Source: Anaerolineae bacterium (GTDB taxonomy: Bacteria > Chloroflexota > Anaerolineae > Aggregatilineales > Phototrophicaceae). Taken from it: a stretch of 64,000 nt of DNA. Below the pieces are notes generated by a model. That model was given only the letters and a program-made list of their open reading frames with translations. It was not told the DNA's origin and searched no databases. The position numbers and the translations under genes were made by a program. Each line of letters starts with the position of its first letter. The stretch's first letter is position 1. This document shows, piece by piece, positions 6,848 through 37,888 of this stretch. Location: assembly GCA_013360465.1 (NCBI GenBank), contig JABWBO010000005.1, positions 1 through 64,000 of the forward strand. Reading direction: 5' to 3'.

Positions 6848-6851
6848 GTCT

Positions 6852-8159: not shown

Positions 8160-8234
8160 GGGTGGGCGGCGTGGGAATCGAAGGATTTTGCGCTAGACTA
8201 TTACCAGGACCGACCATCCCTACGGACGCTGCCG

Positions 8235-12127: not shown

Positions 12128-12181
12128 TGACAGGTTTCTTTTTGTGACATAATTGCGATCAGGAAAAGCGACGAGGAGATC

Positions 12182-12642: not shown

Positions 12643-12990
12643 AAATCAACCCCATTCGCGCGCCCCAAAAACCGAGCTTCGACAGTCACGCCGGTCAACG
12701 CCTGAAGGGTTCCACGAAAGGATAGCATCATGGGCAAGGAGCAGCTCGAGGGCAGCAGCCACAACCCACGCGCCGCGCCGGGCGCTTGAACGGATGACCG
12801 GGGCGTAAAGGAGTCACGTCCCCTCGCCCCGTGCGTGTGGGAGAGGGGATACAGGGATGAGGGGAACCCCCTAAAAAAGTCCCGGCTCGAAACCGGCGTT
12901 CTTGACGGAATCGTCACATCTTCGTCAACTTCTGGCACAGGTCCTCCGCTATGCTCAGGATGTGTTGTAAGAGCATGTGAGGGAGGGCTT
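12643..12990. other. Intergenic stretch with a REP-like hairpin
   Basis: 348 bases without a supported gene. CCCCTCGCCC (12820-12829) and GGGAGAGGGG (12839-12848) form a hairpin related to the repeat at 11302-11326. A 19-codon frame at 12730-12789 has no family resemblance. The Tat-substrate gene downstream has GAGGGAGG as ribosome site. Confidence 0.5.
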
Positions 12991-14484
12991 ATGCCGACCA
13001 GCAGACGTGATTTTCTCAGGTTTTCGACGAGCGCGCTGATCGCCGCTGCGGCGGGGAGCGGCTACGCCTCGGCGGTCGCCGCCCAGCAGGGGGCAGAGAC
13101 TCTGCCCGCCGCCCGCGACCCGGCACTGCACTTTTTGAACCGCATCACCTACGGTCCGCGCCCGGAAGAGGTCGAGCGCATCCGCCAGATCGGCATCGAG
13201 GCGTATCTCGACGAACAGCTCCACCCGGAAAGCATCGACGACTCGGCGATGGACGAGCGCCTGCGGCAGTTCCCCATCCTGTTCATGGACCGCCGCGCCA
13301 TCCACATCCTGGGGACCGATGGACGGGTCTGGTTCGCCCTGATTCGCGGCATGATCGAGCGCGCCGCCTACAGCAAACGCCAGTTGTTCGAGCGCATGGT
13401 CGAGTTCTGGACGGACCACTTCAACGTCTCTGGTGACGACTACGTGCCGGACATGGCGCTGATGCACCGCGAGGTCATTCGCCGGCACGCGCTCGGAAAA
13501 TTCCGCGATCTGGTCATCGGCACGGCGCAGCACCCGGCGATGCTCTACTACCTGGATCAGGCGTACAGCGATAAGGAACACCCGAACGAGAATTATGCTC
13601 GCGAACTGCTGGAGCTGCACACGCTCGGCGTCGATGGCGGCTACAGCGAGGCGGATGTCAAGGAAGCCGCCCGCGCGCTGACCGGCTGGACGGTCCACGA
13701 CGGCACGGAGACCGGCTTCTTCTTCGACGCCGAGATGCACGACTTCGACGACAAATTCATCCTCGGTCACGAAATGCCGGAAGGGCGCGGCATTGAGGAC
13801 GGGCTGCACCTGATCAGCATCGCCGCCAATCATCCCTCGACGGCGCACTTCGTCTGCCGCAAGCTGTGCGTGCGCTTCGTCAGCGACGATCCGCCGGAAA
13901 ACCTGGTGGAAAGCGCCGCCCAGGTCTTCCGCGAGACGGGCGGCGAGATCGCGCCGGTGCTGCGCCACATCCTGCTCTCGGCGGAATTCCAGGCGTCGGC
14001 GGGGCAGAAGCTGCGCCGCCCGCTGGAATTCTTCATCGGCGCGATCCGCGCCACCGGCACGACGGTGCGCGACGACTGGTTCTACCTGAGCCTGCTGGAA
14101 GACCTCGCCCAGGTCCCGTATCAGTGGAGTCCGCCCAACGGCTACCCGGATGCCGCCGGGGCGTGGCTGGGGTCGAGCAGCCTGCTGGCGCGCTGGAACA
14201 CCGCCATGACCCTGACTCATGCGGCGTACAGCGAGCAGGACAGCGGCATGACGACGCAGCTTCGCCAGCGCCTCGGCAGCCCGGAGAGCATCGGGCAGAT
14301 GGTCGATGCCGCCGCCGCCCAGGTCTTCGGCGCGCCTCTGCCACAGGCGGAACGCGCCCAGTTCGTCGCCTATGCCTCGGACGGCGGCGGCGAGCAGGCT
14401 GCGGCGTCGCCGCGCGTGATCGCCGACAAGCTGGGCACGCTCACCGGGCTGATGCTGGCATCGCCGCTTTTCCAGTGGAGGTGA
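12991..14484 (+). CDS. Tat-exported DUF1800 family protein
   Basis: 497 residues from the ATG at 12991, preceded by GAGGGAGG. The N-terminus (SRRDFLRF plus a hydrophobic Ala-rich stretch ending ASAVAA) is a twin-arginine signal. The mature part has family landmarks: FLNRITYGPR, EFWTDHFNVS, HPAMLYYLDQ, NENYARELLELHTLGVDGGY, EAARALTGWT. DUF1800 proteins are commonly encoded next to DUF1501 proteins, as here. Their reaction is unproven. It is likely folded with a cofactor before export to the cell surface. Confidence 0.9.
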   Translation: MPTSRRDFLRFSTSALIAAAAGSGYASAVAAQQGAETLPAARDPALHFLNRITYGPRPEEVERIRQIGIEAYLDEQLHPESIDDSAMDERLRQFPILFMDRRAIHILGTDGRVWFALIRGMIERAAYSKRQLFERMVEFWTDHFNVSGDDYVPDMALMHREVIRRHALGKFRDLVIGTAQHPAMLYYLDQAYSDKEHPNENYARELLELHTLGVDGGYSEADVKEAARALTGWTVHDGTETGFFFDAEMHDFDDKFILGHEMPEGRGIEDGLHLISIAANHPSTAHFVCRKLCVRFVSDDPPENLVESAAQVFRETGGEIAPVLRHILLSAEFQASAGQKLRRPLEFFIGAIRATGTTVRDDWFYLSLLEDLAQVPYQWSPPNGYPDAAGAWLGSSSLLARWNTAMTLTHAAYSEQDSGMTTQLRQRLGSPESIGQMVDAAAAQVFGAPLPQAERAQFVAYASDGGGEQAAASPRVIADKLGTLTGLMLASPLFQWR

Positions 14485-14556
14485 ACCCGATGCGGCGGAT
14501 GCCGCTCTGCACCACCGATGATCTGACACGAGTCGCAGCTATGGGAGCATCTGCAT

Positions 14557-15822
14557 ATGCCTACACGACGTGATTTTCTGCGTGGAGCCGGCGCATTGGG
14601 CGCTGTCGGGGTCAGCAAGCGTTTCTTCCCGGCGTGGATGCCGCGCCTCGCCTTTCGCCAGGCAAGCCAGGCGAGCCGGGGGGATGTGCTGGTCGCCATC
14701 TTCCTGCGCGGCGGCATCGACGGCTTGAGCGTGGTCGTGCCCTATGGCGATGGCGCACACTACTACGACGCCCGCCCTACCCAGGCGGTCGCCGAACCGG
14801 GTTCGGGGAGCAGCGCCGCGCTCGATCTTGACGGCTACTTCGGGTTTCATCCGGCGTTCGCCCCGCTGATCGATATCTACCAGGGCGGCGCGCTGAGCGT
14901 CGTCCACGCCACCGGGTCGATTGACCCCAGCCGGTCGCACTTCGACGCCATGCAGTTCATGGAATATGGCACGCCGGGCAGCAAGACGACCGGGACCGGC
15001 TGGATCGGGCGGCATTTGCAGACCGCGTCCTGGCAGAACGACTCGCCGTTCCGGGCGGTCGGCATGGGGGCGATGTCGCCAGCGTCGCTGCGCGGTGCGA
15101 CGCCCCTGTCGCTGCGCTCGATTGCCGATTTCCACCTGCGCGGGCGGGAAGGTGAGCTGCGGCGCGCCCAGCAGTCGCTCATGCATCTGTATTCCGTCAG
15201 CGCGCCGCAGGATGCCCTGCAGTCGCAGGCGGGGCTGGTCTTCGAGACCATCGACCTGCTGCAAGCGCTGAATGCCGTCACCTACCAGCCGGCGAACGGC
15301 GCGGTTTACCCGGAAGACGAAGAAGGCTTTGGCATGGGGCTGCGCCAGATCGCCCAGTTGATCAAAGCCAATGTCGGCTTGGAGGTCGCCTGTCTGGACC
15401 TGGGCGGCTGGGACACGCACGAGAACCAGGGCACGCATGACGGCTATTTCCAGAGCCAGCTTGCCGTGCTGGCGCAGGGCTTGAGCGCCTTCTATGCCGA
15501 CATGCAGGACCTCATGCCGGGCGTCACAGTGGTGACGATGAGCGAGTTCGGGCGGCGGGTGGCGGAAAACGGCAGCGCCGGCACCGATCACGGACATGGC
15601 AACTTCATGCTGGTCATGGGCGGCGGGGCGCAGGGGGGGCGGGTCTATGCCGATTGGCCCACGCTCGCGCCGGAAGTCCTGAACGATGGCGATCTCGCCA
15701 TCACCACCGACTACCGCGACGTGCTGGCGGAGATTCTGACCTACCGGCTGAACAACCCGGCGCTTGACCAGGTTTTCCCGAATTTCACGCCGACACCGCG
15801 CGGCATTGTCACCGCTCGCTGA
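14557..15822 (+). CDS. Tat-exported DUF1501 family protein
   Basis: 421 residues with the Tat signal TRRDFLRGAG at the N-terminus. Landmarks of DUF1501, an alkaline-phosphatase-superfamily-like fold, include FLRGGIDGLSVVVPYGD, HPAFAPL, HATGSIDPSRSHFDAMQFME, DLGGWDTHENQG, MSEFGRRVAENGSAGTDHGHG and VLAEIL. The His/Asp-rich motifs suggest metal binding. It follows the DUF1800 gene after 72 bases, the recurrent pairing of these families. Function remains unassigned, with proposals centred on cell-surface or sulfated-polymer metabolism. Confidence 0.9.
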   Translation: MPTRRDFLRGAGALGAVGVSKRFFPAWMPRLAFRQASQASRGDVLVAIFLRGGIDGLSVVVPYGDGAHYYDARPTQAVAEPGSGSSAALDLDGYFGFHPAFAPLIDIYQGGALSVVHATGSIDPSRSHFDAMQFMEYGTPGSKTTGTGWIGRHLQTASWQNDSPFRAVGMGAMSPASLRGATPLSLRSIADFHLRGREGELRRAQQSLMHLYSVSAPQDALQSQAGLVFETIDLLQALNAVTYQPANGAVYPEDEEGFGMGLRQIAQLIKANVGLEVACLDLGGWDTHENQGTHDGYFQSQLAVLAQGLSAFYADMQDLMPGVTVVTMSEFGRRVAENGSAGTDHGHGNFMLVMGGGAQGGRVYADWPTLAPEVLNDGDLAITTDYRDVLAEILTYRLNNPALDQVFPNFTPTPRGIVTAR

Positions 15823-16820: not shown

Positions 16821-17816
16821 ATGGCATACCTTCCCGCGGAAACGCGCTATGACTCGATGCAGTACCGGCGCACCGGACGCAGCGGCTTGCTGCTCCCGGC
16901 GGTGTCGCTGGGCATCTGGTATAACTTCGGCGGCGTCGATCCGCTGGAGAACGCTCGCGCCATGCTGCGCCGGGCGTTCGATCTGGGGATCACCCACATT
17001 GACATCGCTAACAACTATGGACCGCCTCCCGGCTCGGCGGAAGAGACTTTCGGGCGTGTGCTGCGCGAAGACCTTGCCGCCTATCGCGACGAGCTGGTCA
17101 TCTCCAACAAGGCGGGCTATTTCATGTGGCCCGGTCCTTACGGCGAATGGGGGTCGCGCAAATACCTGATCGCCAGCTGCGATCAAAGTCTGAAGCGCAC
17201 TGGGCTGGAATACTTCGACATCTTCTACAGCCACCGCCCCGACCCGAATACGCCGCTGGAAGAGACGATGGGCGCGCTCGATTATCTGGTGCGCAGCGGG
17301 CGGGCGCTCTATGCCGGCGTCTCCACCTACAGCCCGGAGCAGACGCGCCAGGCGGCGAAGATTCTGCGCGACCTGGGGACCCCCTGCCTGATCCACCAGC
17401 CGCGCTACAACATGTTCGACCGCTGGATCGAAGACGGTTTGCTCGACGTGCTGCACGAAGAGGGCATCGGCTGTATTGCCTTTTCGCCGCTCTGTCAGGG
17501 GCTTCTGACCAACAAGTACATCCGCGCGGTTCCCGACGACTCGCGTGCCGCCAAGCTGAGTGGTCGCTTTCATTGGGGCGACGAAGTGAGCCAGGAGCGC
17601 ATCGAGAAGGTGCGCAGGCTCAATCAGATCGCCCTGGACCGGGGGCAGGACATGGCGCAGATGGCGGTGGCGTGGGTGCTGCGGCATCGCGGCATGACCT
17701 CGGCGCTGATCGGCGCGAGCCGACCGGAGCAGATCGACGATATCGTCGCTTCGCTCAGTAAGCTGGAATTCAGCGCCGACGAGCTGACCGCAATCGACAC
17801 CCTCCTGGCGGGGTAG
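16821..17816 (+). CDS. Aldo/keto reductase, YghZ/Gpr-like
   Basis: 331 residues, a TIM-barrel NADPH-dependent reductase. The catalytic tetrad is visible: Asp in HIDIANNYGPPPGSAEE, the Tyr of that segment, Lys in VISNKAGYF, and His in YSHRPDPNTP. The cofactor-binding end LIGASRPEQIDDIVASL is present. Motifs match the AKR14 group, of which E. coli YghZ reduces L-glyceraldehyde 3-phosphate and methylglyoxal. A detoxification role is likely. It is monocistronic, between a palindromic terminator upstream and its own promoter. Confidence 0.88.
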   Translation: MAYLPAETRYDSMQYRRTGRSGLLLPAVSLGIWYNFGGVDPLENARAMLRRAFDLGITHIDIANNYGPPPGSAEETFGRVLREDLAAYRDELVISNKAGYFMWPGPYGEWGSRKYLIASCDQSLKRTGLEYFDIFYSHRPDPNTPLEETMGALDYLVRSGRALYAGVSTYSPEQTRQAAKILRDLGTPCLIHQPRYNMFDRWIEDGLLDVLHEEGIGCIAFSPLCQGLLTNKYIRAVPDDSRAAKLSGRFHWGDEVSQERIEKVRRLNQIALDRGQDMAQMAVAWVLRHRGMTSALIGASRPEQIDDIVASLSKLEFSADELTAIDTLLAG

Positions 17817-17831
17817 ACGTGAAGTTCACAG

Positions 17832-17859
17832 TTCCAGCGCGGCAAAGAACGGTTATAAT
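17832..17859 (+). promoter_or_regulatory. Candidate promoter with consensus -10
   Basis: A perfect TATAAT at 17854-17859 follows TTCCAG (17832-17837) after 16 bases. It ends 49 bases before the ATG of the secreted protein at 17909, which has AAGGGGC upstream. Confidence 0.55.
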
Positions 17860-17908
17860 AATCGTAAGAATTTTCTCTGGCGAGCCATTCGCCTGAAGGG
17901 GCAATCCG

Positions 17909-18595
17909 ATGCGACGTTTTCTTCCGCTTATACTGCTGATCCTGCTTGCGCTCGTGGTTCCGGCTGCGTCGGCAGAAGCGGTACCCGGCGACATCATCGA
18001 CGCTGGATTCGATGGATGCAATGCCTATGTTACCTTCATCATGCCTTATCCGCCGGGCGATACATCGCCGCAGGTCGTTGGTCCAACCAATACGGTTTAC
18101 GTGGTCGTGTTCGATAATGGGCTGGTTGTGGACTTCTATGAAGTGACTGGTCCCGCCGGCGACACTTTCACGGTCCTGCATCCCATCACACAGTTGTACG
18201 ACAACGAAGATTTCGTATTCAACCTCAACTACAACAGCGATGACGATGGTTCGGACTACTATGACTACGTACTCGTCAATGTGCCGAATTCGGTCGCCGA
18301 AGGCTGCATGACGCAGACGGGGAACTGCCCATATCCGCTGACGGGCGCTCTGGGACAGGGGCGGGTGCTTGTATCAACAGCGGTCTACTACGGTCCATCG
18401 TACGATACCCTGACCGGCATCGTGCTGCCGGTCGGCACATCCTGGTGGATCATCGGCGCGCGCGATGGCTTCTACAAGCTGTTCATCGCCTGCCAGGCGA
18501 ATTACGTCTGGGTCCCTGCCGAGACGCTGGGATCCAACTTCGATGTCGTCTGGGGCGGCGCGCCTCTCCCTGAGTCGGGGAGCGCCTCCGACTAG
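17909..18595 (+). CDS. Secreted protein of unknown function, SH3-like C-terminus
   Basis: 228 residues with a signal peptide (PLILLILLALVVPAASA). The mature part is acidic, aromatic and beta-rich (NLNYNSDDDGSDYYDYVLV) with Cys pairs. It ends in a segment resembling bacterial SH3 repeats (GTSWWIIGARDGFYKLFIA, NYVWVPAETLG). Such modules bind cell wall or extracellular polymer. No catalytic motif seen. Own promoter with consensus -10; no obvious operon partner. Confidence 0.6.
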   Translation: MRRFLPLILLILLALVVPAASAEAVPGDIIDAGFDGCNAYVTFIMPYPPGDTSPQVVGPTNTVYVVVFDNGLVVDFYEVTGPAGDTFTVLHPITQLYDNEDFVFNLNYNSDDDGSDYYDYVLVNVPNSVAEGCMTQTGNCPYPLTGALGQGRVLVSTAVYYGPSYDTLTGIVLPVGTSWWIIGARDGFYKLFIACQANYVWVPAETLGSNFDVVWGGAPLPESGSASD

Positions 18596-18971
18596 AGTCT
18601 GTTTATGATTGCCGCCGCGCCTGCTTCTTTTCGCAGTCCTTGTGCTGTGGATATGTGGCGCGGCGGTGGTTGTGCATCGCTCATGGCAGGTGTCAGCCAT
18701 CGATACCCAATGGATATCCTTCGCCCCTCCCATCAGCCAATAGTGCTTCCGCTTCAGCCGAATTGTTGATCACTTTTTTGCCTGGTTCAGCTTCTTGTTC
18801 TGTTCCCGTGATTTAGCGTCAGAACGGCGGAATCAGCACGCATGATTCGTCAGACGCTTGCGGAGCAGACTTCTGGCTAACCCACGTGTCGGGCTGTATA
18901 CTCAAATTGAGGGATCGAATCGGTTTGAGAACTGCGCACGGAACGCCCATTCTGCGATAGGTTATCCGTTC
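18596..18971. other. AT-richer intergenic region upstream of the TIR-FGE operon
   Basis: 376 bases where base composition visibly drops in GC relative to the flanks. It holds one doubtful short frame (18609-18743) and presumably the promoter of the TIR operon, but no clear -35/-10 pair. No RNA gene recognised. Confidence 0.45.
18609..18743 (+). CDS. Possible small membrane peptide
   Basis: A TTG-initiated frame of 44 codons begins 13 bases after the preceding gene. It reads PPRLLLFAVLVLWICGAAVVVH, with one convincing transmembrane helix and a short polar tail. No good ribosome site is present. It could be a real small membrane protein or the remnant of a longer gene. Confidence 0.2.
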   Translation: MPPRLLLFAVLVLWICGAAVVVHRSWQVSAIDTQWISFAPPISQ

Positions 18972-20096
18972 ATGTCAGCGTACCCACGCCTCCTGTTTCT
19001 CAGCTACGCCCATGCGGACTCTCTTGCCGTACGGCGCTCGTTCGTGAAGCTGCTTCGCGGCGCTGGCTATGCCGTATGGATTGACAGGACGGGATTACGG
19101 GTTGGGCACGACTGGGCGGTCGAGATACGGAGCGCGATAGCCTCAAGCGATGCATTCCTGGTGTTTTTGTCGCCCAACTCAGTGCGCGAAGAGTCTTACG
19201 TCAATCAAGAAATCAAATGGGCGCTCCAGAATCGAAAGGTGATCTTTCCTCTTTTGATCGCGCCTTTCCCCAACAGCGATTTGCCCGAAAACCTGGAGGG
19301 ACTCCAATGGGTAGACTTCACCGACCCGGACGATGCTATCTGGGAACAGCGCTCCACAGACCTGCTTGATCACCTGAGCCGGCTTGACGAACGACAAAGC
19401 CCGCTCCCCGCTGACTTGAATATCCTCCTGCCGGATGCTCCTCCTTCCTCGCCTCCAATTTTTGACGCACCCCTGGCTTTACCGATCCCTGCCCCACCCA
19501 GTGACGATTGGGTGGAGATCAAGCCGGGCAGCGGCAGTGCGCGCGGTGCATCAAGAAGTGAGAACTATTCTGTTTCGCGTCTGATAGGCATCAGAGACAT
19601 CAGTGTCTTTCGAAAAAGCGACGACTATGATGCCCGTCTCTGGTGGACGACGATGGGATGGGATTGGATAGCTAAGTCAAGGGGAACGATTGCATCAGGG
19701 GATGCCGGCGGGGTGGTGAACTCCGCTCATGTCAGTTGGTACGAGGCGGTCGCTTTTGCGAGATGGCTGTCCTTCCATCACTTCGGCTCACCCGATCTGA
19801 TCCGTTTGCTGAGCGTACACGAGTGGATGAGGTGTATTCATCAGGTGAAGGAGAAAGGGTTTCTGTCTTATGGAGATGAGTGGTGTCTGACCGCCTACGC
19901 CGGCGAGTATGATGCAGCCCTTGAAGCCCTTGAACAGCGTGATAGCGCTTCAACCAATTACTTGTTTGACGTTCTGCGCACGGTGTGTTCCTGGAGCGGC
20001 ACACCAGCCGACATCAGCCGCAGAGCGATGAAACCTGAATTCCCCGGGGCGGGCTTTCGGCTGGCTTGTTTCCCCGACTTGTCGTCAAACCGTTGA
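18972..20096 (+). CDS. TIR domain protein with divergent FGE-like C-terminus
   Basis: 374 residues from the ATG at 18972; an in-frame upstream extension adds only junk before the TIR start. Residues 4-135 are a TIR domain (RLLFLSYAHADS, GYAVWIDRTGLRVG, conserved Glu in YVNQEIKWAL, KVIFPLLIAPF). A Pro-rich linker (155-180) follows. Residues 185-374 resemble a degenerate FGE-sulfatase/C-type-lectin fold: VSWYEAVAFARWLSF, LIRLLSVHEWMR in place of RLPTEAEWE, and terminal GAGFRLACF in place of GFR. FGE catalytic cysteines are not evident, so binding rather than catalysis is likely. First gene of a three-gene operon. Confidence 0.82.
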   Translation: MSAYPRLLFLSYAHADSLAVRRSFVKLLRGAGYAVWIDRTGLRVGHDWAVEIRSAIASSDAFLVFLSPNSVREESYVNQEIKWALQNRKVIFPLLIAPFPNSDLPENLEGLQWVDFTDPDDAIWEQRSTDLLDHLSRLDERQSPLPADLNILLPDAPPSSPPIFDAPLALPIPAPPSDDWVEIKPGSGSARGASRSENYSVSRLIGIRDISVFRKSDDYDARLWWTTMGWDWIAKSRGTIASGDAGGVVNSAHVSWYEAVAFARWLSFHHFGSPDLIRLLSVHEWMRCIHQVKEKGFLSYGDEWCLTAYAGEYDAALEALEQRDSASTNYLFDVLRTVCSWSGTPADISRRAMKPEFPGAGFRLACFPDLSSNR

Positions 20097-20108
20097 GGGG
20101 GTGAAGCG

Positions 20109-20726
20109 ATGTACATGCTTTGGCTAACCCAAACTGCTCCAGTTCTGGAGGAACTGATCAACGCGAAGCGCATAGCTTTCCGGGAAACCTTCGATCTGTC
20201 GGCGATCAAGAAGCTCGACGACGCCGGGGGACGGCAGAATCCGAGCGGCTACTGGACGAATCTGCACATGAAATATGGCGCATTGGGCGACATTGCGCTG
20301 CCCACTCAAAATGCACTGCGCCGCATCGCTTCTCTGTATTCACAGTGTATCCCGCCGATGCGTATTCGAGAGCTAAAAGCCATCCCGGCAGAGATGATCT
20401 GGACGACGAACAGCTCAGACGACGATGACGGACATGCCTTTATCAGGCAGTTCGCCGCCCAACTGGGAATCGAATTCGCCGCCGATTTGCCCAACCCCAA
20501 AACGCAGCTGATCCTGATCAGTCCGGAACACAGCGCAAACCTCGTCTCTATCTGGCGACAGTATCTCTCCCAGGTGAGTCTCGTGATCGTGCTGTTAGGG
20601 ACATCTTACCGCCACGTTCGAGAGGACCTGCACCTTCCGGCGGAATGTTATGCGCCACTCCTCAGTACCGACACGTTGACGACAGTCGATGAGAATATCC
20701 GCAAGAAGATGATCCCGGAAAGGTGA
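20109..20726 (+). CDS. Unknown protein of the TIR-FGE operon
   Basis: 205 residues that I do not recognise. GAGGGGGTGAAG lies before the ATG, 12 bases after the TIR-FGE stop, so it is cotranscribed. The N-terminal half is helical (APVLEELINAKRIAFRETFD, NALRRIASLYSQCIPP) with NPSGYWTNLHMKYG between. The C-terminal half alternates strands and helices (TQLILISPE, SLVIVLLGTSY). No signal peptide or membrane segment. Conserved-looking Trp, His and Glu residues could form an active site but no family motif supports this. Confidence 0.75.
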   Translation: MYMLWLTQTAPVLEELINAKRIAFRETFDLSAIKKLDDAGGRQNPSGYWTNLHMKYGALGDIALPTQNALRRIASLYSQCIPPMRIRELKAIPAEMIWTTNSSDDDDGHAFIRQFAAQLGIEFAADLPNPKTQLILISPEHSANLVSIWRQYLSQVSLVIVLLGTSYRHVREDLHLPAECYAPLLSTDTLTTVDENIRKKMIPER

Positions 20727-20732
20727 GATGCG

Positions 20733-22340
20733 ATGTCGTCTGCCCAATCAGAACCGGCTGTGAATGAAATCCTGGACCGAGCCAGTGCGCTGGTTGACAA
20801 AGCAATCTATAAAGGCGATTTCTGGCTGTCGGTCGATAAGCCGACGAACTACTGGATTTTCCTGGATGATCTGAATACCAGCGCTTTTGTCGATCCGTTG
20901 ACTGCCGTGTTTGAGACAGTCTTCAAACAGTTCCTGGCTGCCAACCCCGGGGAATGGAATGTACTCTACTGTCGTCAGTTTCTCTCTCATGTGACCGAAC
21001 TTGGCGATTTGATTATGCCGCTGGCACTTGGCATAGAAGCACTTCAGAAAGCCGGCTATGAGGATCGCCTGCGATTGATTCCCATAGGGATTAGCGAACG
21101 GCGGACTCTCACCCAGATCAGCGATGAACAGCGCGCTCAACTCGCTTCCGGCTCCTGCCTGATCGTCATCGCGCTCTCGGTGCATGTCAATCTGATAGAA
21201 CATATGGCTGCCGATGTCGCCCGGTTGGGCGGAAAAGTCACGCACGTATTGACCGTCGTGGAGCGTGAGGAAAAAGGACGCCCGATTCTTCAGCGGATGG
21301 GGCTTAGCCTCATACCAATGATGGTCTGGCAGCAGACAGAGGATGCGCTGGCGGTCTCCAGCGTCCTCAGGAGTTTTGACGCGGTTTATGAGCCATATCA
21401 TCGCTATTTCCAGGAAGACTTCGTCGACCTGGATGAAATCCTCAAGCTCAGCCCGCCCAAAGAGACTTCCAAACTGCGCAACAAACTGCGCGACCTTCAG
21501 AGCCAATTGCCGCCGCCGCTCTATGCCAAGGCGGAAAAAATCATTCGCGGGGTTGATGCCCTCTATGAACGAAATCAGGGCATTACCCATGCCGATACAG
21601 AGACGATTCAGCGCTGGCTGCTGAAGAGCCTTTCAGCGGATGACTTCAAAGCGATGGCGAGAGTGGCTTTTGCCGCCTGGGCAACCCCGGAACGCCTGAC
21701 CGGCGAAGGCGTTCAGCACATCAATCTGGCAAATGACATCATGGGGCGTGAAATCGCCGAGACATCACAACGCCTCAAGCTTCAGATGCTGCGGATTCTT
21801 GATCTGGGGGCGGGAGCGTTGGGGACAGTCGGACGGGTTGTGCGCAAGCTTGCCGAGACCAACACCCCGGTGAGTATCGATGCGGTCGAATTCACCCACG
21901 AGCTGCTGGCAGCCGCTTATGCAAGGCGTCTCGAACTGGAGAAATCGTATCCCAATTGCAGTATTGTCGTGCATGATCAGGAAATGCTGACCTACGTGCG
22001 CGCTTTGCCGAATGACAGTTATCACTTCATCACCATTTCCTATGCCATTCATCACCTGCACCCTGATGAACAAGGTGCGCTGGTACAGGAGATGCACCGA
22101 TGCTTGCGCCCCGGCGGCGTCTGCTTCATTGCTGATCCTCAGGAAGGCAAGTCGGACTTCAACCGCAATGTGCTTCTTCGGGAAGAGCCAGAAGGCGTTT
22201 TCGCGATCTTCTCATCTCCAGAGAAGATGATTATGTCCATGGAGAAAGCAGGATTCACGCGAACGCAGATTCTGGAAAAGGATCAGGAATACAAGGGATT
22301 TCTCGTCTGCGGTACAAAGCAGACGCAGGACCCGGCTTAG
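20733..22340 (+). CDS. Degenerate PRTase fused to a SAM-dependent methyltransferase
   Basis: 535 residues, 6 bases after the previous stop, with AAGGTGAG as ribosome site. Residues 20-215 follow the orotate-phosphoribosyltransferase pattern (YKGDFWLSVDKPTNYW, VTHVLTVVEREEKGRP, MGLSLIPMM). The PRPP loop normally reading VVEDVITTGGS is replaced by IVIALSVHVNL, so catalysis is doubtful. A helical linker (225-330) precedes a class I methyltransferase (350-525): LDLGAGALGTVGRVV for SAM binding, an acidic residue at the end of strand 2 (SIDAVEFT), HFITISYAIHHLHP and CLRPGGVCFIADP. Third gene of the TIR-FGE operon. Methyl acceptor unknown. Confidence 0.82.
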   Translation: MSSAQSEPAVNEILDRASALVDKAIYKGDFWLSVDKPTNYWIFLDDLNTSAFVDPLTAVFETVFKQFLAANPGEWNVLYCRQFLSHVTELGDLIMPLALGIEALQKAGYEDRLRLIPIGISERRTLTQISDEQRAQLASGSCLIVIALSVHVNLIEHMAADVARLGGKVTHVLTVVEREEKGRPILQRMGLSLIPMMVWQQTEDALAVSSVLRSFDAVYEPYHRYFQEDFVDLDEILKLSPPKETSKLRNKLRDLQSQLPPPLYAKAEKIIRGVDALYERNQGITHADTETIQRWLLKSLSADDFKAMARVAFAAWATPERLTGEGVQHINLANDIMGREIAETSQRLKLQMLRILDLGAGALGTVGRVVRKLAETNTPVSIDAVEFTHELLAAAYARRLELEKSYPNCSIVVHDQEMLTYVRALPNDSYHFITISYAIHHLHPDEQGALVQEMHRCLRPGGVCFIADPQEGKSDFNRNVLLREEPEGVFAIFSSPEKMIMSMEKAGFTRTQILEKDQEYKGFLVCGTKQTQDPA

Positions 22341-22425
22341 AGACTGTTTGAAAAGCCGGTTTTCACACAACCTCACCCCGGAAACCTGACGGTTTCCTGC
22401 CCCTCTCCAATTGGAGAGGGGCGGT
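22341..22425 (-). repeat. Small inverted-repeat element, copy B (truncated)
   Basis: Bases 22352-22416 are the reverse complement of 11564-11628 (65 identical bases). CGGTTGAGCGCA at the right edge matches the complete copy at 48932-49036. The element begins one base after the methyltransferase stop and runs up to the purC ribosome site, GGAGGTGG. It contains CCCTCTCCAATTGGAGAGGG, a perfect 20-base palindrome able to act as a terminator hairpin. Confidence 0.8.
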
Positions 22426-22446
22426 TGAGCGCACAGGAGGTGGAAC

Positions 22447-23427
22447 ATGCTTGACCGCAATCAGCTCGTCAGCCTCATCCCATCTGCGATTCAGTCGGTC
22501 GAACTTGGGGCATGGGGCGAGAGGGTCGCCGGCAAGGTCCGCGACATCTACCCATATGGCGAGGACCTCGTCTTGATCGCCACCGACCGGATGTCAGTCT
22601 TTGACCGAGTGGTGTGCGCTGTCCCCTATAAGGGGCAGGTCCTCAACCAGCTCAGCCTGTGGTGGTTCGATCAAGTACGCGATCTGGCGGCGAATCACGT
22701 TGTCGCCGCGCTCGACCCGAACGTCGTTGTCGCTCGGCGTGCCGAAGCGCTGCCCATCGAGGTTGTCGTGCGCGGCTACATCACCGGGGTGACCGCCACC
22801 GCGCTGTGGACCCTCTACTGCGCCGGGGACCGCCAGCCCTACGGCATCCCTCTGCCGGAGGGCATGAAGAAGAACGATAAGCTTCCGACGCCGATCATCA
22901 CGCCGACCACCAAAGCGCTGGTCGGGAGCCGCGACGAGCGGCTGACCCGCGAGGCGATCCTCGAACGCCGCATCGTCCCGCCGGCGCTCTGGGAAGAGAT
23001 CGAACACGTGGCGCTGAAGCTTTTCGAACGGGGACAGGCGGTCGCCTCTCGCGCCGGGCTGATCCTGGTCGATACCAAGTATGAATTCGGGCTGGTCGAT
23101 GGCAGGCTAACCTTGATCGACGAGGTACACACGCCGGACAGCAGCCGCTACTGGACTCAAGAATCCTATCAGGCGTCGCACGGTGCTGCGCCGCGAAACT
23201 TCGACAAGGAATTCCTGAGGGAATGGTATGTCGCCAACGGCTATCGGGGGGAAGGGACGCCGCCCCGCCTGCCCAAGGACGTGATCGCCCAGGTGGCGGA
23301 GCGCTACATCGCCGCCTACGAAAGACTGACCCGCAGCACCTTTGCGCCAGAGGCTTACGATCCGCCGCCGGCGCTGCGCATCGCCGGCACGCTGCGCGAC
23401 TACGTGGAACACAGCCGGCAGGGATAG
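22447..23427 (+). CDS. purC: Phosphoribosylaminoimidazole-succinocarboxamide synthase
   Basis: 326 residues, the long form of SAICAR synthetase, which ligates aspartate to CAIR in de novo purine synthesis. Family motifs: GKVRDIYPYGEDLVLIATDR, SVFDRVV, VLNQLSLWWFDQ, VVVRGYITG, LPTPIITPTTKA, ILVDTKYEFGLVDG and LIDEVHTPDSSRYW. Start supported by CAGGAGGTGG. It stands alone, with no other pur gene in the window, directly behind repeat copy B and ahead of a bidirectional hairpin. Confidence 0.96.
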   Translation: MLDRNQLVSLIPSAIQSVELGAWGERVAGKVRDIYPYGEDLVLIATDRMSVFDRVVCAVPYKGQVLNQLSLWWFDQVRDLAANHVVAALDPNVVVARRAEALPIEVVVRGYITGVTATALWTLYCAGDRQPYGIPLPEGMKKNDKLPTPIITPTTKALVGSRDERLTREAILERRIVPPALWEEIEHVALKLFERGQAVASRAGLILVDTKYEFGLVDGRLTLIDEVHTPDSSRYWTQESYQASHGAAPRNFDKEFLREWYVANGYRGEGTPPRLPKDVIAQVAERYIAAYERLTRSTFAPEAYDPPPALRIAGTLRDYVEHSRQG

Positions 23428-23429
23428 GG

Positions 23430-23464
23430 CGATGGCGGGTGCAGAACGACACCACCCGCCATCG
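23430..23464. terminator. Bidirectional terminator hairpin
   Basis: CGATGGCGGGTG (23430-23441) pairs perfectly with CACCCGCCATCG (23453-23464) around an 11-base loop. It lies between the convergent purC and GH4 genes. No T-tract on either side. Confidence 0.65.
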
Positions 23465-23490
23465 TCGGAATGCCGTGAGAAGCGGCGGGG

Positions 23491-24963
23491 CTACTGCCGC
23501 CTTCTCGCTGCGCCGCGCGCCGCGCTCAGCGCGACGCGAGTCCCGTTGGCTTCCGCCTGTGCCAGCCGGTCGCGCGCGCCCTGGATGGCGTCGGGGCTGT
23601 AATTCGGCAGCCAGCGCGCCTGTGCCACCAGCATGTCGTCGGTCATCTGCCAGACCTCTTCAGGATTGCAGACCGCGCCGACCAGTGGATCATGCAGCAT
23701 CGCCTGTTTGAGCAGCGTCACGTCGCCGTGAACTGCCGCCTCCATCGCCATCTCCTGCACGCGGACGCTCGCCGAGCAGGTTGCCGCGCACGCCAGCGGC
23801 AGAGCGCCTACGACGGGCATGTTGATCCCGTTCGCATCCACATAGCCGGGGATTTCGATGACGCAGCCCTCCGGCAGGTTGGTGATCTGCCCGTGATTGA
23901 CGATGTTGAAGTGTCCGCGATAGATGCGCCCGGTCTCCAGCGATTCGATGATGTACGAGCCGTGTTCCAGGCTTCGCTCTTCCGCTGTGATCTTCGTCGG
24001 TTCGCCCGCCATCCAGCGCGGGAATTCCGTCTCGAACCAGCGGCGTCCTTCGGTGCAGACGCGCAGATAGCCGCCGGTCTCGCCGTGAATCCAGTCGGAC
24101 ATGTCGATCCAACGGGGGATTTCGTCGAGGCGCTTGCGATACCAGGGCAGGTATTCGCTCAGATGCCCATTGGATTCGGTGCTGTAATAGCCGAAGCGGC
24201 GCAGCACATCGATACGCACTTTTTCTGTCTGTCGGTAGGTCGGATGCGCTTCAAACAGGCTCAGCAGGTGGGGAATCATATCCATGCCGCGCCATTGGAC
24301 TTTGACGTACCAGGTCTGATGGTTGATGCCCGCCGCTGCGATATCCACATCGCGGTGCGTGACCGTTTCGTCCGGCGCGATCCTGCCTTCGCTGCGCGCC
24401 CACAGGGTGATGCAGTCGGCGATCTGCTGATGCCCATGCTGGATGCCGTGACATAAGCCGATGGTCGGCACGCCGCCGTACTTGTTACACGCCCAGGTGT
24501 TCATCGCCATCGGGTTGGAATAGTTCAGGAACAGCGCATCCGGTTTGGCGGCAGCGCGGATGTCGTCACAGATCGCCAGCAGTTCGGGGATCGTCCGCTG
24601 TCCGTACATGATGCCGCCCGCGCACAGCGTATCGCCCACGCACTGATCGACGCCATATTTCAGCGGGATGTCGATATCCAGGGCGAACGCTTCCAGCCCA
24701 CCCTGGCGGATGGTGGAGATGACGTAATCGGCGCCTTCGAGCGCTTCCAGCCGGTTCGTCGTCGGCAGCACCTGGGCGGGCAGGGCGTTGGCGGCGATGT
24801 CGCGCCGGCAAAGCTGAGTGACCATATCGAGGTTGTGTTCGGAAATATCCATCAGCGCGAAGGTCGTGGCTTGCAGTTCCGGCACGGACAGGATGTCGTA
24901 CATCAGCCGCCGGGTGAAGCCCACCGATCCTGCGCCGATCATGGCGATCTTGACTGCGTTCAT
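23491..24963 (-). CDS. GH4 family glycosidase (alpha-galactosidase-like)
   Basis: 490 residues from the ATG at 24963, which has AGAAGGTGGG before it. GH4 enzymes use NAD and Mn for redox-elimination hydrolysis. Rossmann start KIAMIGAGSVGFTRRLMYD, NYSNPMAMNTWA, the metal-Cys motif LCHGIQHG, AAGINHQTWYV and the late VEIPGYVD-like segment (CVIEIPGYVDANGIN) fit the MelA/AglA branch. It cleaves alpha-galactosides or alpha-glucuronides in the cytoplasm; the branch is not decidable by eye. Convergent with purC and divergent from nothing obvious; single-gene unit. Confidence 0.9.
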   Translation of the reverse strand: MNAVKIAMIGAGSVGFTRRLMYDILSVPELQATTFALMDISEHNLDMVTQLCRRDIAANALPAQVLPTTNRLEALEGADYVISTIRQGGLEAFALDIDIPLKYGVDQCVGDTLCAGGIMYGQRTIPELLAICDDIRAAAKPDALFLNYSNPMAMNTWACNKYGGVPTIGLCHGIQHGHQQIADCITLWARSEGRIAPDETVTHRDVDIAAAGINHQTWYVKVQWRGMDMIPHLLSLFEAHPTYRQTEKVRIDVLRRFGYYSTESNGHLSEYLPWYRKRLDEIPRWIDMSDWIHGETGGYLRVCTEGRRWFETEFPRWMAGEPTKITAEERSLEHGSYIIESLETGRIYRGHFNIVNHGQITNLPEGCVIEIPGYVDANGINMPVVGALPLACAATCSASVRVQEMAMEAAVHGDVTLLKQAMLHDPLVGAVCNPEEVWQMTDDMLVAQARWLPNYSPDAIQGARDRLAQAEANGTRVALSAARGAARRRQ

Positions 24964-25045
24964 AACCCACCTTCTCTGTGCAGCGCATAAAACGCCCATA
25001 GTGTAGCGCGCGCGCCGCAGAATGGTGGGCTGGTTCCTCAGTCGA

Positions 25046-28000
25046 TTACGGCGCTGTGTCAGCGGGTTTGACCGGCAGGATCACGGTGAAGGTCGTCCCC
25101 CTGCCTTCTTCGCTCTCGACCATGATCACCCCGCCGTGCATCTCCATCGCCTGTCTGGTGATGCTCATGCCCAGCCCGGTTCCCGATATGGCTCCGACGT
25201 TCGATGCACGGTGAAAGGGTTCGAACAGATGCGCCAGGTCCTTAGTCGGGATGCCGATGCCTTCATCCTTGACGGAAAGCACCTGTTCTTCGCCGTCGTC
25301 GGAGAGGCGGACGAGTACCGGTTTCTCGATGGGCGAATACTTGAGGGCATTGGAGATCAGATTGCCGATGACCTGGCGCATCAGACGCACATCGACATCG
25401 GCGTTCACCGGGGGGGCGTCGCAGGTGTAATGAAGTCTGCCCTGATGTTGGACGCTGCTGTCGAATTCTTCGATGATCTCGCGACACAGGTCATCCAGAT
25501 TGTGCTGGGCAGGTCTGAACTCGACGCGCCCCGCCTGGATGCGCGCCAGATGCAGGACATCCTCCATCACATCTTTCATGTAGATGACCTGCTGACGTAT
25601 CTTGACGAGGCGCGCCTCGATCTGATCTTCGCTCATCCTTGACCGATATGCGGCGAGCGTTTCAGCCGCCGCCAGGATGGTCGCCAGCGGGGTACGAAAC
25701 TCGTGCGACGCCATCGAGACAAAGCGTGATTTCAGTTCACCCAGCTCTTTCTCTTTGCGCAGCGCCTGCCGCAGTGTCTCCTCGCTGTGCTTCAGGTCCG
25801 TGATATCCCAGTTGACGCCGACCATCTTCAGGGGATCGCCCGCCGCATCGTACAGAGTGATCCCGTTGGCTTTGAGATGGCGGATTTCGCCCGTCGGACG
25901 GACGATGCGATACTCGGTGTCGTACGGCACACCTTCGTTGAGCGCCGCCAGCGATAAACTCAGCACACGGGTCAGATCTGCCGGGTGAATATATCTGTTG
26001 GCGGCTCCTGGCGGCAGCGGAGTCTCCTGTGCCGGCAGCCCGTGAAGCACGAACATGCGCTCGTCCCAGATCAGCCGGTCGGTCTGAAAATCCCACTCCC
26101 AGGTGCCGATGCCACCTGACCGGGTCGCCAGATCGAGATGCTGCGATAGGGAGAACGTCCGTTGTTCGGCGCGCTTACGCGCCAGCAGCGAACCCGCCGT
26201 CAGCGCATACAGCGTCAGGATATCGATCTGCGGTTGGGTGATCGGGCGGCGCTCAAGCGCATTGTCGATCACCAGCCAGCCCAGCAGCTCGCCATCCCAC
26301 AGGGCTGCCGCCGCGCTGCTGCCGCCGCCGATCGGTTGGAAATCGACGTAGAGCATGGTCTCTTCATCGAAAACGAAGCGCTCGCTACGTTCCGAGGCAC
26401 GTTTCAGGATTCCCGTCAGGCTGGCGGGGTCCCGGCGGGTTGGGCGACCGTCGACGACTCTGCCGTTCATGTCGGTGACGTAAGTCCCGACGGCTGCATC
26501 GTGTGCCGGATCATAAAGCAGGAGTTCCAGCCGCTCAAAGTCGAAGCGCGCCAGCCCTTGCTCGACGATCACCCGGTAGAAGTCGTCCAGCATTTCCGTC
26601 CGAGCGAGCTGGATGCTGATGTCGTGCAGCGCCTTGAGGTACGCCTGGAATTGAAGTTCCTGGTGGAGCGTCTGTTCCAGTGCCCGCTCGGTCTGCTTGC
26701 GTTCGGTGATGTCGCGGATGATACACACCAGACTTGTCACAGAAGGTTGGGTTCGGTTCACCGGCGCAATGCTGATCTCCGCGTCGAACGAGGAGCCGTC
26801 GGCGCGCCAGAAGCGCGTTTCAAGACGCTGTCGGCTGTGCGACGCTGCTGCGCTTTGCACGATGGCATTGACGGTGCCGGCGCTCGCCGGTTCGACGAAA
26901 GCGTCCAGCTTTCGCCCCAGGGTATTCTGCGCGGGGAGACCGGACTGCATACCAAAAGTATAGTTCGCCTGTTGAATGCCGTTGTCCACGTCCAGCAGCA
27001 GGATGCCATCGCCGCTGTGGTCGAAGATCGCTTCGATGCGGTTCTTCACACGTTCCAGTTCGGCAGTCCGCTCGATCACCCGCGCTTCGAGTCGATCATT
27101 GGCTTCTTCAAGCGCTACTTTTGCCAGGTGCTTGTCGGTGATGTCGGTCGCATGGATCATGGCAGCGTAAGTTCTGCCCGCGCCATCCCGTACCGGCTGG
27201 ATGCTGGTTTTGAACCAGCACTGTCTTCCGCCAAGAAGCACGCTGGTTTCCAGAGTGAGTCCCTTCTCCGCGTCCATACAGCGCCGAACGTCGGCGAGGA
27301 TGCTGTTCGCCTGATCCTGAGGAAACAGATCGTAGACGCTTTTGCCCACCAGCGCTCCCGGAGCCACACCGAAAGGGTGTGCTGAAATCCCATTGAGATA
27401 GAGATAGCGCCCGCCGTAATCGACCATCGAGATCGCCGCGTCCGAGCTTTCCAGCAGGCTGCGATACCTTTCCTCGCTGGCACGCAGCGCATTGTTGAAG
27501 TGCTGACGGCGTATGATGGGAGCGATTTGTCCCAAGGCGACCTTCAGGAAATCGAGCGTCGATTCGTCGTGAGGCATCACCTCAAACTTCATGAAGACCA
27601 GCACCGCCAGGACCTCACCCGCTTCGACCACCGGGATAGACACAGACCCATGCAGTCCCGCCTGACGCGCCGCATCAAGACGAGGCATAAAGGCTGAAGA
27701 CCCCTCTTCTACATCGGGTATCCAGATCGCCGCCTGACTTTCCCAGGTGCGACCGGGTATGCCTTCGCCCAGACGAAAGACTGTCGCCTGGGTGATGGCA
27801 TAGAACGGCGACAGCAGGGTGGTGTGATCGGGATGGATGCAGTGCGCCGGCGCGCAGCGCAGCAGGTGCGCCTCACGATCCAGCAGCCATACCTCGCTGT
27901 AGATGAAGGCGAATTCCGCACAGATCAACCTGAGCGTGGTGCGCAGAACATCGTCCAATTCGACGGACACGTACGTCTCGTTCAAGAGTCGGTACAGAAA

Positions 28001-28816
28001 ATGGAGTCGTTCCTGTGCTGCCCGACTTTCGGTGATGTCGCGCCCAACCCCCTGATATTCGATGAAACTACCATCGGCGTCGAAGAGCGCGCGATCCGTC
28101 CACTCGATCCAGCGCCGGCTCAGGTTTGTCATGATAGACCGATGCACGGACACCGAGACCGGATTGTCGTGCGTCAGCGCCCGGACATGAGCAAGCGCGC
28201 GATCACGGTCTTCGACGGGAATCTGCTGCAAAAGGTTTGCCCCCAGCAGGTCCTCACGCGTCTGACCGCGCCACTCACAGTAGGCGCGATTGACAAACGT
28301 CAGAATGAAGTCGGTGTTATAGCGGCAGATCAGTTCTGTTTGATGCTCAACAATACTCTCATAGCCGGCTTCGCTGGCGCGCAGGGCGGCTTTCATCGCC
28401 TGAACGGTTCGACGCAGTCGGCTGGTCTCCAGTTCACGCTCAATCAACTGGGCAAGGCGCGGCAGATCGCTCGCCTCGACGGCGGCGCGCGCGCCGGCAC
28501 GAATCAGCGCCGCTGCTTCTCCATTCAGTGCCGGCATGATGATGATGACCGGCGCGGCGGATTCCAGCGCCTGCGCAGTCTTCAGAATGTCATAGGGGCT
28601 GGTGAATGTCACCACTGAATCGCATAGGACGAGATCCCAGGAATGCTCCGCCAGCGCTGTTTGCAGCGCCGAGAAGGATGTGACGCGATGAATACCGGGG
28701 TCGGCACCCTCTTCGCCGGCATACAGTAAAAACATCAACTGAGCTTCATCGAGGGGGGAATCGCCGATGAAAAGGATGCGTTCGCGCGTGGAGATCGGAT
28801 CTGACAGCAGGCTCAT
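25046..28816 (-). CDS. Multi-PAS/GAF sensor histidine kinase with degenerate receiver
   Basis: 1256 residues with no membrane helix, so cytoplasmic. Order: receiver-like domain (about 14-135; the acceptor-type Asp in DLVLCDS is present but the conserved Lys is replaced), PAS (145-270), GAF (285-430), PAS (440-560), coiled coil, PAS (595-705), GAF (735-885), PAS (910-1020), HisKA with FVSMASHEFRTPLATI (about 1037), HATPase with NLISNALKYSP, DEGIGIPTKDL and GTGLGMSITRQA. It likely integrates several small-molecule or redox cues. No partner regulator is adjacent. Translational start has only a weak ribosome site. Confidence 0.9.
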   Translation of the reverse strand: MSLLSDPISTRERILFIGDSPLDEAQLMFLLYAGEEGADPGIHRVTSFSALQTALAEHSWDLVLCDSVVTFTSPYDILKTAQALESAAPVIIIMPALNGEAAALIRAGARAAVEASDLPRLAQLIERELETSRLRRTVQAMKAALRASEAGYESIVEHQTELICRYNTDFILTFVNRAYCEWRGQTREDLLGANLLQQIPVEDRDRALAHVRALTHDNPVSVSVHRSIMTNLSRRWIEWTDRALFDADGSFIEYQGVGRDITESRAAQERLHFLYRLLNETYVSVELDDVLRTTLRLICAEFAFIYSEVWLLDREAHLLRCAPAHCIHPDHTTLLSPFYAITQATVFRLGEGIPGRTWESQAAIWIPDVEEGSSAFMPRLDAARQAGLHGSVSIPVVEAGEVLAVLVFMKFEVMPHDESTLDFLKVALGQIAPIIRRQHFNNALRASEERYRSLLESSDAAISMVDYGGRYLYLNGISAHPFGVAPGALVGKSVYDLFPQDQANSILADVRRCMDAEKGLTLETSVLLGGRQCWFKTSIQPVRDGAGRTYAAMIHATDITDKHLAKVALEEANDRLEARVIERTAELERVKNRIEAIFDHSGDGILLLDVDNGIQQANYTFGMQSGLPAQNTLGRKLDAFVEPASAGTVNAIVQSAAASHSRQRLETRFWRADGSSFDAEISIAPVNRTQPSVTSLVCIIRDITERKQTERALEQTLHQELQFQAYLKALHDISIQLARTEMLDDFYRVIVEQGLARFDFERLELLLYDPAHDAAVGTYVTDMNGRVVDGRPTRRDPASLTGILKRASERSERFVFDEETMLYVDFQPIGGGSSAAAALWDGELLGWLVIDNALERRPITQPQIDILTLYALTAGSLLARKRAEQRTFSLSQHLDLATRSGGIGTWEWDFQTDRLIWDERMFVLHGLPAQETPLPPGAANRYIHPADLTRVLSLSLAALNEGVPYDTEYRIVRPTGEIRHLKANGITLYDAAGDPLKMVGVNWDITDLKHSEETLRQALRKEKELGELKSRFVSMASHEFRTPLATILAAAETLAAYRSRMSEDQIEARLVKIRQQVIYMKDVMEDVLHLARIQAGRVEFRPAQHNLDDLCREIIEEFDSSVQHQGRLHYTCDAPPVNADVDVRLMRQVIGNLISNALKYSPIEKPVLVRLSDDGEEQVLSVKDEGIGIPTKDLAHLFEPFHRASNVGAISGTGLGMSITRQAMEMHGGVIMVESEEGRGTTFTVILPVKPADTAP

Positions 28817-37819: not shown

Positions 37820-37831
37820 GAGGAGATAAGA

Positions 37832-37882: not shown

Positions 37883-37888
37883 CTTCTC

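What the first reader, a model, noticed from the sequence alone, without database searches (positions are those of the whole stretch)
18972..22340. Candidate undescribed system: TIR-FGE, unknown protein, degenerate PRTase-methyltransferase
Three genes with gaps of 12 and 6 bases, lower GC than both flanks, bounded by a gene-poor region and a mobile-type repeat. A TIR domain (known NAD-cleaving fold) joined to an FGE-like binding domain is encoded with an OPRT-like/methyltransferase fusion and a protein of no known family. One speculative link is NAD or nicotinamide chemistry: TIR releases nicotinamide, and a PRTase fold and methyltransferase could sense or modify a base or nucleotide product.
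Basis: partly seen in the sequence, partly recalled or inferred. Interest (0 to 1): 0.88.

Follow-up and report, generated by a model that had tools for sequence, protein, structure and literature searches.

The report
TIR operon with loop-less phosphoribosyltransferase-like core
Three tightly packed bacterial genes look like a rare immune-type operon: a probable NAD-cutting TIR protein is encoded beside a phosphoribosyltransferase-shaped domain that has lost its catalytic loop and is fused to a methyltransferase, a core that turns up again in a distant relative beside different conflict-type proteins.

Summary
Three same-strand genes (18972-20096, 20109-20726, 20733-22340; gaps 12 and 6 bases, low GC) encode a TIR + diverged FGE-like protein, a protein of no known family, and a PRTase-like domain fused to a methyltransferase. 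A dispersed hairpin repeat follows; it is absent in a sister MAG. The PRTase call rests on a low-confidence AlphaFold model whose best PDB matches are PRTases and on a profile match to OPRTs (E 8.9e-5; 0 of 200 shuffles reach it). The PRPP loop is gone; LS[VI]HV[ND]L stands there, also in a distant relative.

Recurrence: of 400 phylum genomes, only this one and G398 (another class) match strongly with the PRTase-like and the methyltransferase queries. G398 fuses gene 2 to the PRTase-like domain while the window fuses PRTase-like to methyltransferase, so the three modules form a linked core. But G398 has no TIR-FGE; its operon holds EAD7-CHAT, TPR, radical-SAM and EAD7 proteins. The full trio is known only here and in the sister MAG.

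Best reading: a rare conflict-type operon with an undescribed core and exchangeable effectors (0.45). The nicotinamide idea has no support. No function was tested; three loci are known, two of them sister orthologs.

The parts
18972..20096 (+). Gene 1, 374 aa: TIR domain (residues 9-121, 18996-19334) and FGE-like C-terminal domain (best stretch residues 222-301, 19635-19874); Glu80 pairs with the conserved TIR glutamate of 7uwg
20109..20726 (+). Gene 2, 205 aa, no known family; homologous to the N-terminal part of a 439-aa PRTase-like protein in G398
20733..22340 (+). Gene 3, 535 aa: degenerate PRTase-like domain + linker + class I methyltransferase
20733..21422 (+). PRTase-like domain (residues 1-230)
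   Evidence: AlphaFold model with Foldseek and VIA-align; hhalign to OPRTs over residues 159-201
21171..21194 (+). place of the lost PRPP loop (residues 147-154, ALSVHVNL); LS[VI]HV[ND]L also in G398
21795..22280 (+). methyltransferase domain (residues 355-516) with SAM-binding DLGAG at residue 357
22345..22433 (.). dispersed REP/MITE-like hairpin repeat, absent in the sister MAG; marks the right border, probably not part of the function

Best explanation
A conflict (immune-type) operon. Shown: three co-directional genes under purifying selection; a core of gene 2, a PRTase-like domain without its PRPP loop, and a methyltransferase, whose pieces are fused in different pairs in two classes of one phylum; each copy sits beside conflict-type proteins (TIR-FGE here; EAD7-CHAT and TPR proteins in G398). 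Inferred: the gene 2 and gene 3 proteins form one complex that senses invasion or sets the threshold; the PRTase fold binds a nucleotide-like or protein ligand rather than catalysing; the methyltransferase, whose SAM motif is intact, modifies a partner or ligand; the complex then releases the TIR protein, whose FGE-like domain recognises the invader or the partner, and NAD+ is broken down, stopping growth of the infected cell.
For: PRTase-like and MTase queries were strongly matched in the same 2 of 400 phylum genomes (equal tallies suggest the same 400). Fusions: G398's 439-aa protein = gene 2 (44% over 70 aa, E 7e-17) + PRTase-like (24% over 220 aa, E 9e-17); its 307-aa MTase is 42% identical over 299 aa, E 9e-80 (pairwise BLASTP). 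G398's operon of six genes has gaps 14, -4, 19, 43, -4 and carries EAD7 twice (1.3e-13, 1.1e-16), CHAT (1.8e-10), TPR (2.1e-11) and a radical-SAM protein (1.7e-12). TIR Pfam E 3.6e-24 with the conserved Glu. The PRTase-like part has dN/dS 0.067: kept, though the loop is lost. FGS and EAD domains are read in print as sensing and recruiting parts of counter-invader systems (PMC8195603 and PMC7159879, passages seen).
Against: TIR-FGE is tied to the core in one lineage only (this genome and its sister G064). The genome has 36 TIR_2 matches, 35 over the cut-off, so adjacency could be chance. The direct flanks are metabolic genes, not a defence island, though an EAD8-TIR-NACHT-FGE gene lies at 8235-11402. 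The PRTase model has mean pLDDT 52. The P-loop NTPase reading of the two large G398 proteins is below Pfam's cut-offs (AAA_16 21.2 and 27.4 bits of 32.6). Nothing shows that the three proteins bind one another.
Confidence: 0.45

Rival explanations
1. Genes 2-3 are a modification module (peptide, protein or small-molecule tailoring): the PRTase fold is a substrate-binding domain, the methyltransferase does the chemistry, and in G398 a radical-SAM/SPASM maturase adds a second step; TIR or CHAT proteins are the modified targets or the guards.
For: G398's operon encodes a radical-SAM/SPASM protein closest to PapB (E 5.9e-40) beside the MTase, and a TPR protein with a weak match to the FxSxx-COOH system TPR protein (E 4.7e-7); the MTase stretch ADPQEGKSDFN is identical in both.
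Against: No radical-SAM gene among genes 1-3; the NCBIfam scores are far below their cut-offs (137.5 of 340; 28.7 of 300). Small ORFs of the G398 operon were listed and looked at by eye only, with no clear peptide precursor.
Confidence: 0.25
2. Chance neighbours: TIR-FGE is one of many TIR proteins of this genome and genes 2-3 are a separate unit, transcribed together only by position.
For: 36 TIR_2 and 20 FGE matches in the genome; TIR-FGE not found in the G398 operon; the TIR gene evolves faster (dN/dS 0.18 against 0.06-0.07).
Against: 12-base gap with a good ribosome-binding-like site; same order kept in the sister MAG; the G398 core also sits in a conflict-type operon.
Confidence: 0.25
3. 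The PRTase-like domain is still an enzyme with an altered PRPP or nucleotide site, working with the methyltransferase in one pathway.
For: Strong purifying selection (0.067); LS[VI]HV[ND]L kept across classes.
Against: No acidic PRPP loop at the expected place in gene 3 or G398 (a motif-like IFLDDLNTSA at residues 42-51 lies in the wrong strand and has no counterpart in G398). The acidic pair [ED]D of that loop is in 16 of 16 aligned OPRT-type sequences and the strict motif in 14 of 17 loci.
Confidence: 0.05

Closest known systems
STAND NTPase-FGS / EAD counter-invader systems (eLife 2020 PMC7159879, eLife 2021 PMC8195603)
   Same: TIR effectors, FGS lectin-fold domains and, in G398, EAD7. A full EAD8-TIR-NACHT-FGE protein lies in this window at 8235-11402.
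   Different: The window operon has no NTPase and no EAD match. The 2020 paper has no occurrence of phosphoribosyl, PRTase, methylase or methyltransferase; the 2021 paper none of PRTase or radical SAM and one unrelated methylase.
Type III retron PRTase-like effector (PMC12548924, passages)
   Same: PRTase-like protein in an anti-phage operon with a second protein.
   Different: No reverse transcriptase in the 12 neighbouring ORFs scanned and no PADLOC retron match; here the PRTase fold is fused to a methyltransferase. The two PRTase families were not compared directly.
Thoeris / other TIR NADases
   Same: TIR domain with the conserved glutamate.
   Different: No ThsA match in genes 2-3; ThsB models match gene 1 only weakly (Pfam 13.8 of 21.2 bits; PADLOC 20.9 bits).
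MADS (mad2 methyltransferase)
   Same: Best PADLOC hit of the methyltransferase (E 3.4e-11; 4.1e-16 in G398).
   Different: Only profile positions 291-425 of 492 align for gene 3; genes 1-2 match no mad model.
PyrE and other type I phosphoribosyltransferases
   Same: Fold of the model (VIA-align Z 11.8, 2.9 A over 151 residues to UPRT 1i5e) and a 43-column profile match to OPRTs.
   Different: PRPP loop lost.
FxSxx-COOH / radical-SAM peptide systems (for the G398 relative)
   Same: A TPR protein and a radical-SAM protein; the known system also has a TIR-like component by its NCBIfam name.
   Different: All scores far below family cut-offs; no FxSxx peptide was searched for.

Membership tests
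TIR NAD hydrolase | TIR domain | tested here: met
   TIR_2 E 3.6e-24, 86 bits, cut-off 28
TIR NAD hydrolase | conserved glutamate (catalytic role recalled) | tested here: met
   Glu80 pairs with the Glu of NYEL in the phmmer alignment to 7uwg; the alignment to 7uxr places its gap elsewhere and does not pair it
TIR NAD hydrolase | NAD+ cleavage | not testable with these tools
   needs an assay
FGE/FGS domain | Pfam FGE-sulfatase above cut-off | tested here: not met
   21.5 bits against 23.3, 21.9; own-genome FGE profile hhalign E 8.6e-4, probability 23.6%, supports a diverged member
Type I phosphoribosyltransferase (OPRT) | PRTase fold | tested here: met
   Of the 50 PDB rows shown 47 are titled as PRTases or OMP synthase; 2dy0 (two rows) and 7f06 have uninformative titles; E 1.1e-6 to 1.4e-4. 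Model mean pLDDT 52
Type I phosphoribosyltransferase (OPRT) | sequence-profile similarity to OPRT | tested here: met
   hhalign with 16 OPRT-type sequences: E 8.9e-5, probability 59.6%, 43 columns; 0 of 200 column shuffles reach it, best 0.0069. Negative earlier: 7-sequence profile E 0.077; hmmsearch ranks 43 and 93 among 226 reported, mostly shuffles; no PRTase by HMMER in PDB
Type I phosphoribosyltransferase (OPRT) | PRPP-binding loop | tested here: not met
   absent at the expected place in gene 3 and G398; acidic pair in 16 of 16 aligned OPRT-type sequences
Thoeris | ThsB-type TIR above cut-off | tested here: not met
   ThsB_TIR 13.8 of 21.2 bits; ThcB4 24.3 of 220
Thoeris | ThsA beside the TIR gene | tested here: not met
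   no ThsA among the matches of genes 1-3 at E <= 1; other neighbours not scanned with PADLOC
Type III retron | reverse transcriptase beside the PRTase | tested here: not met
   no RT family in 12 neighbouring ORFs between 5207 and 33031 scanned with Pfam; the ORFs at 23491-28816 were not scanned
Type III retron | retron ncRNA | tested here: inconclusive
   no Rfam match 17500-23500; Rfam may not hold the relevant RNA
MADS | set of mad genes around mad2 | tested here: inconclusive
   MTase domain only; genes 1-2 match no mad model; wider neighbours not scanned with PADLOC
STAND NTPase-FGS counter-invader system | STAND/NACHT NTPase joined to FGS | tested here: not met
   no NTPase match in genes 1-3 at E <= 1
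FxSxx-COOH system | FxsB, FxsC, TPR protein above cut-offs | tested here: not met
   FxsC 15.3 of 130 for gene 1; in G398 TPR 28.7 of 300, FxsB 58 of 370
FxSxx-COOH system | FxSxx precursor peptide | not tested
   no pattern search was made
SAM-dependent class I methyltransferase | domain above cut-off with SAM motif | tested here: met
   Methyltransf_25 43.7 bits of 27; DLGAG at 357

The most novel reading that the evidence does not exclude
Gene 2, the loop-less PRTase fold and the methyltransferase are an undescribed signalling core that makes or reads a methylated nucleotide-like or peptide signal and switches on interchangeable death effectors (TIR here, a CHAT protease in G398).
Probability: 0.2. 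Interest if true: 0.85.

Novelty: new variant of a known kind. Interest (0 to 1): 0.58.

Why it matters
TIR and CHAT effectors are usually described with known sensors or switches (STAND NTPases, nucleotide cyclases, EADs; recalled and from the passages cited). Here a core of unknown logic, built from a PRTase fold stripped of its catalytic loop, a protein of no known family and a methyltransferase, stands beside both kinds of effector. If it is a sensor it would be a new way to gate NAD-depleting and protease effectors, and a further case, after type III retrons, of a PRTase fold in anti-phage operons.

Tried and rejected
Recent exchange of the three genes as a block: rejected. The block is 95.1% identical to the sister MAG G064 while its direct flanks are 84.8% and 88.6%, which first looked like exchange. 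But other parts of the two genomes are 92-96% identical (three pieces, one), with dS 0.19-0.34 for eight genes against 0.12-0.21 in the block and 0.44-0.62 in the short flank pieces. The ninth row (37031-38713) gave an impossible ratio, probably a wrong frame, and was dropped.

OPRT by sequence: first negative. One search used only 7 of 17 OPRT loci, chosen by the loop motif itself, so a count of the loop in those (9 loci) is biased and is not used.

FGE profile: the seed and 10 of 16 own-genome loci passed my length rule; a first try caught only one. hmmsearch with it gave gene 1 only 5.2 bits.

Gene 2 fold: model pLDDT 39.6; Foldseek 0 matches at E <= 0.001, so no fold is claimed. It is a loose contrast to the PRTase model (110 matches), not a matched control. 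No useful PDB sequence match.

Relatives elsewhere: none in plasmids (E limits 0.01, 0.01, 1e-10, 1e-5; also none for the G398 CHAT and radical-SAM proteins) or viral contigs. Genome contigs gave one locus, the sister MAG. Six weak hits (E 9.8e-4 to 9.9e-3) and a partial MTase hit in G399 (E 1.1e-14, profile positions 126-243) were not counted as relatives and not followed. Gene 2 alone was searched in 154 order genomes only (2 hits, itself and G064). (2 of 400: G398 and G399) seems largely to repeat the genomes. Other phyla were not reached. The plasmid search with gene 1 gave 4 records, all on the TIR part.

DGR-type hypervariation of the FGE-like domain: the 19 differences to the sister MAG are spread, not clustered at the C-terminus. 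Rfam: nothing. Tandem repeats: none. Repeats inside 17.8-23 kb: none of note; the dispersed repeat appeared on comparison across loci. A viral-library fold search also led with PRTases among mixed weak matches.

Literature: the searches listed no paper that I recognised as describing a PRTase-methyltransferase fusion with TIR or CHAT; this covers only those searches of the open library and only titles, abstract starts and passages. PMC7159879, PMC8195603, PMC10907252 and PMC12548924 were seen as passages only.
Full report
What is there. Three + strand genes, gaps 12 and 6 bases, sit between an aldo/keto reductase (16821-17816) with a 228-aa protein after it (17909-18595) and purC (22447-23427). 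Their GC is about 0.55 against 0.64 in the two metabolic neighbours. The related MAG G064, whose contig is identical to JAEURA010000070.1 titled 'Anaerolineae bacterium' (hence the phylum Chloroflexota, by recall), keeps the same three genes in the same order between the same two metabolic genes, at 95-98% protein identity, but lacks the 228-aa gene there. dN/dS is 0.18 (gene 1), 0.064 (gene 2), 0.072 (gene 3) and 0.067 for the PRTase-like part alone, within or near the 0.03-0.15 of eight other genes. So these are real, maintained genes.

Gene 1. A TIR domain (E 3.6e-24) is followed by an FGE-like region below Pfam's cut-off. The region carries VSWYEA...RLLSVHEW...YGDEW, which lines up with the FGE pattern; a profile of FGE domains from this genome finds it better than the five other alignments tested (E 8.6e-4 against 0.26-0.74), though at a probability of only 23.6%. 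Glu80 pairs with the conserved TIR glutamate in the alignment to 7uwg, not in that to 7uxr. In published conflict systems FGS domains are read as lectin-like sensing parts (PMC8195603, passages).

Gene 3. The C-terminal domain is a class I methyltransferase with a DLGAG motif. The N-terminal 230 aa matched no family in Pfam, PADLOC, NCBIfam or PHROGs. An AlphaFold model from a three-sequence alignment has mean pLDDT 52.4 and pTM 0.53. Even so, of the 50 best PDB rows shown 47 are titled as phosphoribosyltransferases or OMP synthase and the other three have uninformative titles (110 matches at E <= 0.001). VIA-align gives Z 11.8 at 2.9 A over 151 residues with UPRT. A profile comparison with 16 OPRT-type sequences gives E 8.9e-5 over 43 columns (residues 159-201), with 0 of 200 column shuffles reaching it (best 0.0069) and the reversed profile at 0.34; smaller or single-sided searches had missed it. 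At the place of the PRPP loop the family reads LS[VI]HV[ND]L in the window and in G398, while all 16 aligned OPRT-type sequences have the acidic pair there. I therefore call it an OPRT-like PRTase fold that has lost its catalytic loop and kept another, conserved, motif.

Recurrence. In 400 genomes of the phylum, the N-terminal query (326 aa) gave 8 matches at E <= 0.01, of which two are convincing, this genome and G398. The MTase profile gave 2 of 400 at E <= 1e-15, the same two. In the class of the window the MTase profile rang in 1 of 396 (itself), and in the class of G398 the PRTase-like profile in 1 of 158 (G398). In the window's order gene 2 rang in 2 of 154, this genome and G064. G398 carries a six-gene operon (L014, - strand, gaps 14, -4, 19, 43, -4): a 439-aa protein that is gene 2 fused to the PRTase-like domain; a 926-aa EAD7-CHAT protein with a P-loop region below Pfam's cut-offs; a 924-aa TPR protein with a similar sub-threshold NTPase match; the methyltransferase; a radical-SAM/SPASM protein; and a 201-aa EAD7 protein. 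Two transposase-like genes lie upstream (my reading of the translations). The three modules are thus fused as 2+PRTase in one class and PRTase+MTase in another, which argues that they work together, and both copies stand beside conflict-type proteins. TIR-FGE was not found in the G398 operon, so the full trio is known only from two sister genomes.

How it may work (inferred). The gene 2/gene 3 complex senses or sets a threshold, using the PRTase fold as a binding site and the methyltransferase to mark a partner or ligand; it gates the effector; TIR then breaks NAD+. Confidence 0.45. Rivals: a modification module, suggested by the radical-SAM neighbour in G398 (0.25); chance adjacency in a genome with 36 TIR_2 matches (0.25); a still active PRTase (0.05).

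Place among known systems. By the tests listed it is not Thoeris, not an FxSxx-COOH system and not a STAND-FGS system; a type III retron is not met on the reverse transcriptase, and MADS is left inconclusive. It shares single parts with each. Nine literature searches (listed under Tried and rejected) showed no description of this core. I file it as a new variant of a known kind, effector operons of the conflict type, with an undescribed core, on three loci of which two are sister orthologs.

The repeat. Just after gene 3 lies a hairpin-forming dispersed element (fold z-score -4.06) with copies at 11564-11635 and 48965-49036 and in four other fetched loci of the genome, missing at the same place in the sister MAG.

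Noticed in passing
window 8235-11402 (+): EAD8-TIR-NACHT-FGE protein of 1055 aa, an architecture like published STAND-FGS conflict systems, 7.5 kb upstream of the finding; followed by a copy of the same hairpin repeat at 11564-11635.
   Followed up: partly
window 22345-22433, 11564-11635, 48965-49036; also L027, L040, L043, L046 and, in the sister genome, L082: Dispersed REP/MITE-like hairpin repeat, with ACCTCACCCC...GGGGTGAGGT ends in some copies, absent at the orthologous place in a sister MAG.
   Followed up: partly
L014 (G398:C24) 4962-14962, - strand: Six-gene operon with gene 2/PRTase-like fusion, EAD7-CHAT protein, TPR protein, methyltransferase, radical-SAM/SPASM (PapB-like) and EAD7 protein: perhaps an undescribed system of its own.
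   Followed up: partly
whole genome G000: 36 TIR_2 matches (35 over the cut-off) and 20 FGE-sulfatase matches (19 over the cut-off) in 5.9 Mb: a TIR-rich genome.
   Followed up: no
window 17909-18595 (+): 228-aa protein with a signal-peptide-like start (by eye) and no Pfam family over the cut-off, present beside the operon here but not found at that place in the sister MAG.
   Followed up: no
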